Of a DNA stretch of 64,000 bases, positions 50,586-54,494 are shown one piece after another. The notes under the pieces were generated by a model that saw only the letters and a program-made list of their open reading frames with translations, was not told the DNA's origin and did no database searches. The translations under genes were made by a program, and so were the position numbers. This stretch comes from Bergeyella zoohelcum ATCC 43767 (GTDB lineage: Bacteria > Bacteroidota > Bacteroidia > Flavobacteriales > Weeksellaceae). The DNA lies in NCBI RefSeq assembly GCF_000301075.1, contig NZ_JH932293.1, positions 318,417-382,416 on the forward strand. Reading direction: 5' to 3'. Numbering within the stretch: the stretch's first letter is position 1; the number at the start of each line of letters is the position of its first letter.

Positions 50586-51017
50586 TTAACAAAAAGCAAT
50601 TTTATCTACCCTTCCCTGATGTCTTCCGCCTTCAAAATCTGTAGTAAGGAAGGTATTTACGATCTCTAATGCCAACTCCTTCGCTATAAAACGAGCTGGA
50701 ATAGCCACCATATTACAATTATTGTGCTGTCTTGCTAAAGCACCTAACTCGGGCATCCAACACAAAGCACATCTTATACCCTTGTGCTTATTCGCAGTAA
50801 GCTGTACTCCCTGTCCACTTCCACATATTAATATCCCAAATTCATTCTCTCCATTTTCTACAGATGAAGCCGCTGGATGCACAAAATCTGGATAATCTAC
50901 CGAATCCAAAGAATGCGTACCATAATCCGTGATTTCATATTTTCCTTTCAACTGCTCTTTTAAAAATTCTTTGTATTCAAAACCTGCATGATCACAAGCA
51001 ATCGCTATTTTTTTCAT
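50586..51017 (-). CDS. rpiB: Ribose 5-phosphate isomerase B
   Basis: Pentose phosphate enzyme interconverting ribose 5-phosphate and ribulose 5-phosphate. The 143 aa protein has the RpiB/LacAB motifs IAIACDHAGFEYKEFLKEQL at the start, ILICGSGQGVQLTANKHKGI with the catalytic cysteine region, ALARQHNNCNMVAIPARFI and FEGGRHQGRVDKI. Minus-strand TATTTTTG at 51057-51050 is a likely -7 box. Transcription runs away from the putative origin. Confidence 0.94.
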   Translation of the reverse strand: MKKIAIACDHAGFEYKEFLKEQLKGKYEITDYGTHSLDSVDYPDFVHPAASSVENGENEFGILICGSGQGVQLTANKHKGIRCALCWMPELGALARQHNNCNMVAIPARFIAKELALEIVNTFLTTDFEGGRHQGRVDKIAFC

Positions 51018-51693
51018 AAGTTTTTATGTGTTATTCATTGTTTTCCTGACAAAAATAAAGGAAAAAAATGAAAATTAGAATATATTTTCACCATCAAGTT
51101 CAAATAAAAATAGGTTATCCACATCGGTTCATTTTAGAAATAAAATATACTCTACTGATAATGAATCAACTGAAAAATCTACCTAAGTTTAATGATTTAA
51201 TAATGAAAAAATTAAGCCGAAATGAAAAAATGTGAGTCAAAATGTGAATAACTATGGAAAAATAAGAATAAAAAATACTTGTACCAATCAAAATAAAGCA
51301 TAATGGAAAAAATGAATGATAAATACAATACTTTTTTATAAAAATTTTCAAAAGACCTTTTCTATATATTTTCTGAAAATTGTTATACGCATGATTCATC
51401 AATAATAATAATCCATAATTGTGAATAAAATACTTAATATAATGATTATCAGATTAATATTATTCACAAAAGTAATGCTAAAAATGAGAATAAAATCGGT
51501 ATAAGTCAGTACCTAATAATTATCCACAAATTCACAAACACTTAACAACAGCCTCCGTATTATTTTTTTATTAATTAAGAAAAAAAGTACTGATGATGAT
51601 GAATATGTTTTGTGAAAAATGAATGGAGAAGAAAACATAAAGTTCAAGGGAATATTTGTATTTTTGTGCTATATAAAATTTCAACTCTCTCTT
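51018..51693. other. Candidate chromosomal replication origin (oriC)
   Basis: AT-rich, gene-free region between the divergent rpiB and pgk genes. DnaA boxes: perfect TTATCCACA at 51115-51123 and 51520-51528; TTATTCACA (one mismatch) at 51460-51468 and, on the minus strand, at 51251-51243 and 51428-51420. The + strand composition switches here: by hand count 35 G against 63 C in 50581-50820, and 49 G against 27 C in 51961-52140. The same trend holds for genes on the opposite strand (34081-34200: 17 G, 29 C, coded on +; 56281-56520: 51 G, 41 C, coded on -). dnaA itself is not in the window, as is usual for many Bacteroidota. AT-rich repeats near 51530-51600 could be the unwinding element. Confidence 0.75.
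51659..51666 (+). promoter_or_regulatory. -7 box of pgk
   Basis: TATTTTTG, exact -7 consensus, 27 bp before the pgk ATG at 51694; no clear -33 element. Confidence 0.45.
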
Positions 51694-52884
51694 ATGAAAA
51701 CAATCAAAAATTTCAATTTTTCTGGCAAAAAAGCATTGGTGCGTGTGGATTTTAATGTACCTCAAGATGCTGATAAAAAAGTAACCGATAATACCCGCAT
51801 TGTAGCAGCAAAACCGACTATAGATAAAATTCTTAATGACGGTGGGGCAGTGGTCATCATGACACACCTAGGAAGACCTAAAGGAAAAGTAAATGAAGAG
51901 TTTTCTTTGGCTCAAATTGTTTCAGAAGTAGCTAAAGTACTGGGCAGAGAAGTAAAATTTGCTCCTAATTGTATAGGGGAGGAGGCAGAAAAAATGGTAG
52001 CAGAATTAAAAGCTGGAGAAGTTTTACTTTTGGAAAATCTTCGTTTCCATGCAGAAGAAGAGTCTGGTGATCTGGCTTTTGCTGAACAACTTGCTAAGTT
52101 AGGGGATGTCTATGTGAATGATGCTTTCGGTACAGCCCACAGAGCTCATGCTTCCACAGCGGTGATTGCTCAGTTTTTTCCTGAAACTAAGTTTTTCGGT
52201 TTATTAATGGCTCATGAATTAGAGGCGATAGATAAGGTACTTCATTCTGGGGAAAAACCTGTAACAGCCATTCTGGGAGGGTCTAAAGTTTCTACTAAAA
52301 TCACGATTATAGAAAATATTCTTCCTGCGGTGGATAACTTGATTATCGGTGGCGGTATGGCCTTTACTTTTATCAAAGCACAAGGTGGAAACATTGGTAG
52401 TTCTTTGGTAGAGGAGGATAAATTGGATTTGGCTTTGGATATTTTACAGAAGGCGAAAGCCCAGAATGTAAAGGTGTACATTCCTGTAGATGTGATTGCA
52501 GCAGATGCTTTTAATAACGATGCCGATAGAAAAGAAGTTCCAGCAGATGAAATTCCTGAGGGATGGATGGGATTAGATGTAGGTGCGAAAACATGCACTA
52601 TGAATAATGATGTAATCATGAATTCTCGTACTATTCTCTGGAATGGACCATTAGGAGTTTTTGAAATGTCTAATTTTGCTGAAGGAACTAAATCTTTAGG
52701 TGATAGTATTGCAGAAGCAACGAAGTTAGATGCTTTTTCTCTCGTAGGCGGAGGAGATTCTGTAGCTTTTGTAAAGCAATTTGGCTATGCAGATAAGGTT
52801 TCTTATGTTTCTACAGGTGGGGGAGCAATGTTAGAAAGCCTTGAAGGTTTGGAGCTTCCTGGAGTAGCAGCGGTTAATAAGTAA
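51694..52884 (+). CDS. pgk: Phosphoglycerate kinase
   Basis: Glycolytic kinase that makes ATP from 1,3-bisphosphoglycerate. From the ATG at 51694 it is 396 aa, the standard length. It shows [49 protein letters not shown], the hinge and nucleotide region [14 protein letters not shown], and the C-terminal [15 protein letters not shown] and [14 protein letters not shown] longer open frame from 51619 lies in the promoter and origin region and is rejected. Confidence 0.96.
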
Positions 52885-52995: not shown

Positions 52996-54018
52996 ATGAA
53001 ACAAGATTTGGTAAATTCTTCCGTACATAGGAAAAATATATTGAATAATAATATTGCAATACCTAAGATTTATGAGGCAATTGGCTATGATGGGATTTTC
53101 TTTGATAAAAAATATAGATTTACCAAAGAACAAATCATTGATTTTTATGAGGTAGATACAAGAACAATAGAGCGATTGATAGAAAATCACGAATCTGAAA
53201 TTCAGTATAGTGGTTATGAGGTATTTACGGGACAAAAACTTCGAGATTTTAAAGATGAAATTTTAAAAAATAATATATCGTTATACGATAGAATTAATAA
53301 AGCTCCTTCTTTAGGTGTATTTACTTTTAAATCTCTATTAAATATAGGTATGCTTTTATCAGAATCGGAGAGAGCACGGCAGGTTCGTTCTTTGATACTG
53401 GATATTGTGATAGATGTTCTGAATCAAAGAGCTGAAGGGCATACGAAATATATTAACCAAAGAGAAGAAAAGTATTTAGAATCAGCTATTAATGAGTTTG
53501 ATTGCAGAAAGAAATTTACAAATGCTATTGATTTTTATATTGTTAAAAATAACTTTAAATATGCTCAATTGACAGATAAAGTGTATAAAAGTATTTTTAA
53601 TGAAAAGGCGAAAGAATATAAAAAAATATTAAATTTATCTAAATCAGATAGTGTTAGGGCGACTTTGTATTCCGAAGTTTTGAGAATTATCTCAGATTAT
53701 GAAAATGGTTTTGCGAAAGAGTTAGAATTAGAATATCACAAAAAAGGGGATAAACTTACTTTGACGGAAGCTCATTATATCTTTAATGATTTTGCAAAGA
53801 GGGCAGAATTTTTAATGGAAAATTCTATTAATCAAGCAAGACAATTGATGGCAAGTAGAGATTTAGTTTTTAGAGATGTTCTACATCAGAAATTAGAGAA
53901 TTATATAAAAGAAATTTCAGAGGAAGATTTTGAAAAATTCTTAGGAGAGCATAGTATGGCTTTAAGTAAAAGATTTGAAGAAAATAAAGATGTATTTAAA
54001 CGTCTAAGAGATAGATAA
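52996..54018 (+). CDS. RhuM-like DNA-binding protein, candidate antitoxin of Doc
   Basis: A 340 aa protein. The N-terminus (YRFTKEQIIDFYEVDTRTIE, residues about 40-60) and LGVFTFKSLLNIGMLLSESE with RQVRSLILDIVIDVL resemble RhuM/Bro-N-type DNA-binding proteins. The C-terminal 170 residues are helical and charged. In other genomes RhuM-like and Doc-like parts occur fused in one protein; here they are split, with the toxin ATG overlapping the last base of this stop codon (TAATG). That makes an antitoxin or regulator role likely. It is much larger than the usual Phd antitoxin of Doc, so the pair is not the textbook type. Confidence 0.7.
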   Translation: MKQDLVNSSVHRKNILNNNIAIPKIYEAIGYDGIFFDKKYRFTKEQIIDFYEVDTRTIERLIENHESEIQYSGYEVFTGQKLRDFKDEILKNNISLYDRINKAPSLGVFTFKSLLNIGMLLSESERARQVRSLILDIVIDVLNQRAEGHTKYINQREEKYLESAINEFDCRKKFTNAIDFYIVKNNFKYAQLTDKVYKSIFNEKAKEYKKILNLSKSDSVRATLYSEVLRIISDYENGFAKELELEYHKKGDKLTLTEAHYIFNDFAKRAEFLMENSINQARQLMASRDLVFRDVLHQKLENYIKEISEEDFEKFLGEHSMALSKRFEENKDVFKRLRDR

Positions 54019-54494
54019 TGTTAACTTTGATATATCCCAAAATAGAAGATATTATTGAAAAACACGATGAAATTATCAAGATTTCAGGTGGGTTAAATGG
54101 AGTAAAGAATATAGGATATTTGGAAAGTCCTCTTAGTTTTGTCCAAGAGAATGATTATTATCCAAAATTTGAGGATAAACTAACTCATTTGGTATTTTCT
54201 ATTAATAAAAATCATGCTTTTGAAGACGGAAATAAAAGAACCTCAATTGCAATAGGAGCAATGTTTCTAGAATTTAATGGATTTGGATATATAGTGGGCA
54301 AATTTATTAGAGAAATGGAGAATATATCAGTCCTTGTTGCTGATAATTTTATAGATAAGTCACTTTTAAATGAAATTATTTATTCCATAATCTTTGAAGA
54401 TGATTATAGTGAAGAATTGAAATTGAAGATAATTTCTGTAATGACTGTTTTTGAAGAAAGAAAGAATGACACATATGATGATGATTTTTTTTGA
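54018..54494 (+). CDS. doc: Doc (death-on-curing) family toxin, Fic fold
   Basis: A 158 aa single-domain Fic protein. The motif HAFEDGNKRTSIAIG starts at His66 and matches H-x-F-x-D/N-G-N-K-R of Doc kinases, which phosphorylate elongation factor Tu and stop translation; in Doc the usual second G of Fic is K. It has no internal inhibitory helix, so it needs a partner, presumably the RhuM-like protein it overlaps by one base. The C-terminus is acidic (NDTYDDDFF). Confidence 0.82.
   Translation: MLTLIYPKIEDIIEKHDEIIKISGGLNGVKNIGYLESPLSFVQENDYYPKFEDKLTHLVFSINKNHAFEDGNKRTSIAIGAMFLEFNGFGYIVGKFIREMENISVLVADNFIDKSLLNEIIYSIIFEDDYSEELKLKIISVMTVFEERKNDTYDDDFF

What the first reader, a model, noticed from the sequence alone, without database searches (positions are those of the whole stretch)
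51018..51693. Probable chromosomal replication origin between rpiB and pgk
Two perfect DnaA boxes (TTATCCACA at 51115 and 51520) and three one-mismatch boxes (51243, 51420, 51460) sit in a single AT-rich gene-free interval between divergent genes. oriC has been mapped experimentally in few flavobacteria, and dnaA is not next to it here.
Basis: partly seen in the sequence, partly recalled or inferred. Interest (0 to 1): 0.7.

Follow-up and report, generated by a model that had tools for sequence, protein, structure and literature searches.

The report
Replication origin with dnaA at terminus
This gap between two sugar-metabolism genes is almost certainly where this flavobacterium starts copying its chromosome, and, unusually, the gene for the protein that should start the copying lies at the opposite end, beside the site where copying finishes.

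Summary
The 676-bp rpiB/pgk gap holds five TTATYCACA DnaA boxes, against 0.05 per dinucleotide shuffle (0 of 5000 reach five). No other 700 bp of the 2.33-Mb genome holds more than two. Cumulative GC skew over 144 contiguous kb has its minimum inside the gap (window 51556), and third-position GC skew changes sign between chromosome arms whichever strand a gene is on. The single full match to a dif pattern lies 1.24 Mb away (arc 0.47). In relatives the gap is box-enriched, and pgk is antipodal to dif in 25 of 26 family chromosomes and 10 of 12 from other families of the order; in two of these the skew minimum follows rpiB, not pgk.

That dnaA is far from oriC in Bacteroidetes is in print. Not found in print in ten searches of a partial library: dnaA starts about 0.6 kb from dif here, and lies in the terminus half in 28 of 30 family chromosomes; rpiB may be the older origin neighbour; the origin box (TTATYCACA or TTATYAACA) varies with one residue of DnaA's recognition helix. 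Nothing was measured: marker-frequency sequencing is still needed.

The parts
51018..51693 (.). predicted oriC: 676-bp AT-rich intergenic region
   Evidence: 5 DnaA boxes; cumulative skew minimum at 51556; box-enriched in relatives
51115..51123 (+). DnaA box, perfect TTATCCACA
51243..51251 (-). DnaA box TTATTCACA
51420..51428 (-). DnaA box TTATTCACA; forms an inverted repeat with the next box (I12, 51419-51431/51457-51469)
51460..51468 (+). DnaA box TTATTCACA
51520..51528 (+). DnaA box, perfect TTATCCACA
51386..51505 (.). candidate DNA unwinding element: least stable part of the gap (7 of the 60 least stable 80-mers of the window start at 51386-51426; up to 88% A+T per 50 bp)
   Evidence: nearest-neighbour energies recalled; prediction only, less stable stretches exist elsewhere in the window
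51400..51412 (-). weak DnaA-trio candidate (three triplets, read on the - strand, 8 nt after the 51420 box)
   Evidence: motif definition recalled; short run, no chance test
50586..51017 (-). rpiB (PF02502), transcribed away from the origin
51694..52884 (+). pgk (PF00162), transcribed away from the origin

Best explanation
The rpiB-pgk gap is the chromosomal replication origin (oriC) of this bacterium (Weeksellaceae or very near). DnaA binds the five boxes, opens the AT-rich stretch around the inverted box pair (51386-51505), and two forks leave in opposite directions, co-directional with rpiB and pgk, to meet near dif at C1:1606656. Shown by sequence: the boxes, the skew switch, the opposite dif-like site, conservation in relatives. 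Inferred from how known origins work: DnaA binding, melting, helicase loading, bidirectional firing. The initiator gene dnaA is not at the origin but about 0.6 kb from dif, so it should be among the last genes copied and have the lowest copy number in growing cells.
For: Box cluster unique in the genome. Cumulative skew minimum inside the gap. GC3 skew of coding strands by arm: left arm + ORFs -0.138, - ORFs +0.177; right arm + ORFs +0.134, - ORFs -0.085, so not a gene-orientation artefact. The only full match of a dif-like pattern, at arc 0.47 from pgk. rpiB, pointing away, within 4 kb upstream of pgk in 76 of the 80 best pgk loci (of 538 found); in those 76 gaps 84 TTATYCACA against 2.65 in shuffles, and 1.33/kb in gaps against 0.013/kb in 619 kb of flanks. 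Unbiased 9-mer search in 40 pgk-upstream regions (39 genomes of 30 genera plus the window): TTATCCACA ranks first, 19 of 40 against 0.2 expected. pgk antipodal to dif (arc >=0.4) in 25 of 26 family chromosomes and 10 of 12 of other families of the order; related genomes, so not independent counts.
Against: No direct measurement. Skew was sampled (0.63 Mb of 2.33 Mb including the window), not computed end to end; 4 of 21 right-arm and 3 of 18 left-arm samples have the wrong sign, and around dif the skew is broken by local blocks. In relatives the local skew minimum is not always at pgk: 8.4 kb off in G001, 16.7 kb off in G042, about 23 kb off, next to rpiB, in G221 and G181. 13 of 76 gaps and 14 of 39 genus-spread regions hold no TTATYCACA, and rpiB is not within 3 kb of pgk in 11 of those 39. 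In the 76-gap set the top 9-mers are TTATCCCCG-like, and TTATCCACA is not among the 14 printed. One family chromosome (G059, arc 0.32) and two others of the order (G204 0.346, G155 0.135) are not antipodal.
Confidence: 0.95

Rival explanations
1. The boxes are a DnaA-titration or regulatory cluster (datA- or DARS-like), or DnaA-regulated promoters of rpiB and pgk, and the true origin is elsewhere.
For: DnaA boxes also occur at such non-origin sites in other bacteria (recalled); both flanking genes start from this gap.
Against: The skew switch falls inside the gap and dif is opposite; no second TTATYCACA cluster exists.
Confidence: 0.03
2. The skew switch is only the effect of divergent gene blocks, and the boxes are a chance cluster in AT-rich DNA.
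For: The genes next to the gap point away from it: RNase R, DUF2807 and rpiB are -, pgk and the next two are +.
Against: GC3 skew reverses by arm for both gene orientations; 0 of 5000 shuffles reach five boxes; enrichment is seen in other genera.
Confidence: 0.01
3. The dnaA-dif closeness reflects a local rearrangement or assembly fault in this genome rather than a stable arrangement.
For: In relatives the distance varies widely (15 kb to 909 kb, one at 2.1 Mb), and skew near dif is patchy.
Against: dnaA, the thioesterase gene and dif lie within 2.1 kb of one contig; dnaA is in the terminus half in 28 of 30 family chromosomes.
Confidence: 0.1

Closest known systems
Ori-Finder predicted oriC of Elizabethkingia meningoseptica G4076 (PMC8994065, passages read)
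   Same: Same family (lineage recalled); a 649-bp oriC with three TTATCCACA-type boxes (at most one mismatch), far from dnaA (oriC 740,720-741,368; dnaA 2,613,273-2,614,727).
   Different: In the passages seen the flanking genes are not named and dnaA is not related to the terminus or dif.
Bacteroidetes oriC remote from dnaA (PMC4755523 on Prevotella intermedia, citing DoriC; passages read)
   Different: Another order (recalled); the passages give no rpiB/pgk context and do not place dnaA by dif.
Flavobacterium columnare oriC from DoriC (PMC8092290, passages read)
   Same: One of two hot spots of spacer acquisition lies on the predicted oriC: indirect experimental support for an origin prediction in this order.
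   Different: No coordinates, flanking genes or dnaA position in the passages seen.
E. coli oriC
   Same: DnaA boxes plus an AT-rich region (recalled); DnaA domain IV here aligns to chain 1j1v_A, with GGRDHTTV at the recognition helix (that the chain is E. coli is recalled).
   Different: Different flanking genes (recalled); GATC/SeqA, IHF and Fis sites were not examined.

Membership tests
DnaA-dependent bacterial oriC | cluster of DnaA boxes in one intergenic region, beyond chance and unique in the genome | tested here: met
DnaA-dependent bacterial oriC | switch of GC skew from lagging-type to leading-type at the site | tested here: met
   sampled, not whole-genome
DnaA-dependent bacterial oriC | roughly opposite the dif/terminus | tested here: met
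   arc 0.47; dif function itself not tested
DnaA-dependent bacterial oriC | AT-rich unwinding element next to the boxes | tested here: inconclusive
   low-stability stretch 51386-51505, but less stable stretches exist elsewhere in the window
DnaA-dependent bacterial oriC | intact dnaA in the genome | tested here: met
   DnaA with N-terminal, ATPase and C-terminal domains in one open frame
DnaA-dependent bacterial oriC | BUS-type DnaA-trio | tested here: inconclusive
   three triplets after one box only
DnaA-dependent bacterial oriC | linkage to dnaA (common, not defining) | tested here: not met
   dnaA is 1.24 Mb away; usual in Bacteroidetes per PMC4755523
DnaA-dependent bacterial oriC | highest copy number in growing cells, or autonomous replication | not testable with these tools
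   no reads or experiments
XerCD dif site (the terminus mark used) | one site per genome at the skew change opposite the origin | tested here: inconclusive
   One full match here; in 143 of 148 family genomes with at most one mismatch, exactly once in 121 by my count. Skew turns mostly negative after it, but the cumulative maximum of 1.50-1.72 Mb is 46 kb before it. XerC/D and recombination not tested

The most novel reading that the evidence does not exclude
In Flavobacteriales the initiator gene is held in the terminus half of the chromosome, and here beside dif, because late duplication of dnaA lowers the DnaA-to-origin ratio from initiation until a round is finished, which would act as a built-in brake on re-initiation. 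In the same order the origin, linked to rpiB, changes its DnaA-box letter at position 6 (C or A) together with one recognition-helix residue of DnaA (T/S or A).
Probability: 0.25. Interest if true: 0.75.

Novelty: new member of a known kind. Interest (0 to 1): 0.5.

Why it matters
A firm origin and terminus let read-depth (peak-to-trough) growth estimates, gene-dosage and inversion studies be done correctly in this family. Among the 29 single-contig family records 11 are numbered from dnaA, which by the positions of pgk puts base 1 in the terminus half in all 11. The dnaA-beside-dif layout is a natural test of whether the position of the initiator gene helps to time initiation, and the box/helix co-variation gives a testable case of initiator-origin co-evolution.

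Tried and rejected
The first box count in relatives used a literal N in a pattern, so its TTATNCACA column is void; redone. I first took pgk as the general origin marker. The local skew minima of five relatives did not all fit, and two pointed to the neighbourhood of rpiB, so I changed the claim: rpiB for the wider order, both genes in the family. Considered and set aside: box cluster by chance; gene-orientation skew; titration site. The DnaA-trio reading stays weak. For the helix/box co-variation I first tested residue T against the rest: 460 of 5000 shuffles reach the observed value, not convincing. A against S/T: 7 of 10000, 5 of 10000 without G000, 227 of 10000 within the family; this second grouping was chosen after seeing the table, and kinship is not corrected.

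Rows dropped or chosen: G109 was fetched but only 103 bp exist before the contig end, so 39 of 40 regions entered. Four single-contig family genomes (G001, G031, G048, G051) had no dif place in the capped list and are missing from the 26; G001, listed later, has pgk-dif 0.44. Where two dif-like hits were listed I took the exact one; G131 has two one-mismatch hits, and the other choice would give pgk-dif 0.247 instead of 0.444 and dnaA-dif 0.482 instead of 0.173, that is 24 of 26. Genome sizes are rounded by the tool. Two order genomes (G198, G202) have no dif hit and are outside the 12. G213 was dropped for want of an origin region. The 20-kb piece of contig C2 was used in no count.

The Fic/Doc pair next to pgk was looked at only by Pfam. 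Literature: ten searches of a partial library. The DoriC 2023 paper was not held and DoriC itself cannot be searched here; Ori-Finder 2022 uses lineage-specific indicator genes in a Table S2 that I did not see (PMC10225481, passages). So these origins, and rpiB or pgk as markers, may already be listed there.

Full report
What is there. The window is C1:318417-382416 of a 2.33-Mb, 7-contig genome. The best named pgk relatives are Bergeyella (84% identity), Riemerella (82%) and Chryseobacterium (up to 79%) loci (the tool may leave out the genome itself and very near ones), so it belongs to Weeksellaceae or very near (family name inferred; the genome tool only says f1). The 676-bp gap 51018-51693 lies between rpiB (-) and pgk (+). 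It holds five TTATYCACA boxes at the stated places. Dinucleotide shuffles of the gap give 0.046 on average and never five in 5000. Over the whole genome there are 98 such 9-mers; five lie within 414 bp here and no other 700 bp holds more than two.

Skew. In 144 contiguous kb the cumulative G-C minimum is at window 51556, inside the gap. Of 39 spaced 8-kb samples, 17 of 21 between the gap and dif are positive and 15 of 18 on the other arm negative; the wrong signs are at 670, 1090, 1390 and 1570 kb and at 1690, 1750 and 2170 kb. To exclude a gene-orientation artefact I took third codon positions of mechanical ORFs of at least 150 codons by arm and strand: left arm + ORFs -0.138, - ORFs +0.177; right arm + ORFs +0.134, - ORFs -0.085. 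The sign follows the arm, as replication-linked skew does.

Terminus and dnaA. A recalled dif-like pattern with up to two mismatches gives 14 hits in the genome, no more than the reversed control (15); only one is a full match, TATAATTTATATTATGTTAA at C1:1606656, and one more has a single mismatch. A slightly tighter pattern with at most one mismatch is in 143 of 148 family genomes, exactly once in 121 by my count, while the reversed control is zero in nearly all genomes. Skew is mostly negative after the site, but the cumulative maximum of 1.50-1.72 Mb is 46 kb before it, with mixed blocks between. The site is 1.24 Mb from the gap one way and about 1.10 Mb the other if the small contigs lie on that side (arc 0.47). 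The only PF00308 match is at C1:1605136-1605621. The dnaA gene (from the ATG that I chose, about 1604608-1606074, - strand) is separated from dif by one thioesterase-like gene (PF13279) and starts about 0.6 kb from dif. A TTTTCCACA sequence, a possible DnaA-box variant, lies about 70 bp upstream of that dnaA start (read).

Relatives in the family. Of the 80 best pgk loci (538 relatives found), 76 have rpiB, pointing away, within the 4 kb upstream; in 9 of these the distance is about 2.2 kb, in the rest 0.55-0.93 kb. These 76 gaps hold 84 TTATYCACA against 2.65 in shuffles; 1.33 per kb against 0.013 per kb in 619 kb of flanks; 63 of 76 have at least one, 20 at least two, one three. No gap of the 76 reaches the five of the window. 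In 39 further genomes of 30 genera, 28 have rpiB within 3 kb of pgk and 25 have at least one TTATYCACA. In these plus the window TTATCCACA is the most enriched 9-mer, 19 of 40 against 0.2; in the 76-gap set, mostly Chryseobacterium, the leading 9-mers are instead TTATCCCCG-like and one shared with the pgk start region, and TTATCCACA is not among the 14 printed. In 26 chromosomes (25 single-contig plus this one; sizes rounded) the pgk-dif arc is at least 0.4 in 25; the exception is G059 (0.32); one of the 25, G131, rests on my choice between two equal dif hits. dnaA is further than a quarter circle from pgk in 28 of 30 chromosomes and never nearer than 0.206. On one contig, dnaA and dif are 15 kb apart in G014 and G075, about 20 kb in G035 and 28 kb in G064, so the closeness here is the extreme of a trend and not a fixed distance. 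These genomes are related and the counts are not independent.

The wider order. In 12 single-contig genomes of other families with all three marks, the pgk-dif arc is at least 0.4 in 10, dnaA-dif below 0.25 in 9, and pgk-dnaA above 0.25 in 9; in three (G176, G213, G227) dnaA is nearer the pgk side. The rpiB-dif arc is at least 0.4 in 10 of 12. Local skew minima around pgk were read in five relatives: 15 bp inside the pgk start in G150, where rpiB is adjacent; about 23 kb upstream of pgk in G221 and G181; 8.4 kb off in G001; 16.7 kb off in G042, where skew is weak. In G221 the minimum lies in the gap directly upstream of rpiB, followed by an RNase R-like gene; in G181 it lies 0.1 kb past that gap, inside the start of the next gene. 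So rpiB, rather than pgk, may be the older origin neighbour; this rests on few genomes. In 39 rpiB-upstream regions of other families TTATYCACA occurs 14 times within 600 bp (11 of 39 regions) against 0.96 in shuffles, and never in the next 480 bp; the top 9-mers are TTATCAACA (14 of 39 against 0.35) and TTATTAACA (24 against 1.8). Counting both forms, TTATYMACA, there are 72 in 30 of 39 regions against 4.1 in shuffles and none in the next 480 bp; this pattern was chosen from the same sequences, and the next 480 bp are probably largely coding. Small 0.6-Mb genomes of family f13 listed give no dnaA match at E 1e-30, yet keep adjacent divergent rpiB-pgk where positions are listed; the one gap read, in G212, is 113 bp without boxes. 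They look like Blattabacterium (inferred), for which absence of dnaA and of boxes is in print, with an origin placed by skew in dapB (PMC2768785, passages read).

DnaA and box. The DnaA recognition helix reads GGKDHTTV here, aligning with GGRDHTTV of chain 1j1v_A (E. coli DnaA by recall); relatives have DHST or DHAT. In 40 genomes the origin regions hold TTATYCACA:TTATYAACA 8:1 (T, 3 genomes), 33:15 (S, 22) and 9:23 (A, 15). A against S/T: 7 of 10000 label shuffles reach the observed difference, 227 of 10000 within the family alone. Kinship is not corrected and the grouping was chosen after the fact; the regions are pgk-upstream for the family and rpiB-upstream for the others. G172, outside the family, has DHST and three TTATCCACA, in line; G002, inside it, has DHAT and three TTATYCACA, a counter-example. 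That this residue (Thr435 in E. coli numbering) touches the box is recalled, not tested.

How it works. DnaA binding to the five boxes, opening of the AT-rich stretch 51386-51505 and bidirectional forks are inferred from known origins. Because dnaA lies at the terminus, its dosage should be lowest in growing cells and double only at the end of a round; that this restrains re-initiation is a hypothesis.

What is known. A paper on Prevotella states that in Bacteroidetes oriC is commonly far from dnaA, citing DoriC (PMC4755523, passages). An Elizabethkingia paper predicts an oriC far from dnaA (PMC8994065, passages). F. columnare spacers have one hot spot at a DoriC oriC (PMC8092290, passages). 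A Flavobacterium enshiense paper places the origin at gltX by skew (PMC9867689, passages), which I could not relate to rpiB. Ori-Finder 2022 calls dnaA the usual neighbour and uses lineage-specific indicator genes in a table I did not see (PMC10225481, passages). Passages of PMC8359277, PMC5850607 and PMC13342612 did not bear on the point. None of the passages seen places dnaA by dif or names rpiB as origin marker; searches showed no such statement in titles or abstract openings, in a partial library.

Noticed in passing
G000:C1:1604608-1606675 (outside the window; locus L135:4608-6675): dnaA, one thioesterase-like gene and the dif-like site lie within 2.1 kb, at the terminus; a TTTTCCACA sequence is about 70 bp upstream of dnaA.
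   Followed up: partly
loci L205-L242 and L244, upstream of rpiB in other families: Many of these regions carry TTATCAACA/TTATTAACA rather than TTATCCACA, a possible DnaA-box variant in other Flavobacteriales.
   Followed up: partly
L135 and L245-L284, DnaA helix-turn-helix: The residue after DH in the recognition helix is T, S or A and varies together with the box letter at position 6.
   Followed up: partly
pgk-upstream gaps of the 76 loci among L001-L080: TTATCCCCG-like 9-mers (CGGGGATAA in 54 of 76 gaps against 0.1 in shuffles) lead there: a further box variant or only shared descent among close relatives.
   Followed up: no
window 52996-54018 and 54018-54494 (+): A protein without Pfam match followed by a Fic/DOC-family protein, in low-GC DNA just downstream of pgk: a possible toxin-antitoxin pair close to the origin.
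   Followed up: no
G109 (2,768,102 bp): This relative's record ends with the pgk start, so its base 1 seems to have been set at the predicted origin, whereas 11 of 29 single-contig family records start at dnaA.
   Followed up: no
family f13 genomes, e.g. G212 (L243): 0.6-Mb genomes without a strict dnaA match keep the divergent rpiB-pgk pair; the one gap read is 113 bp and has no boxes.
   Followed up: no
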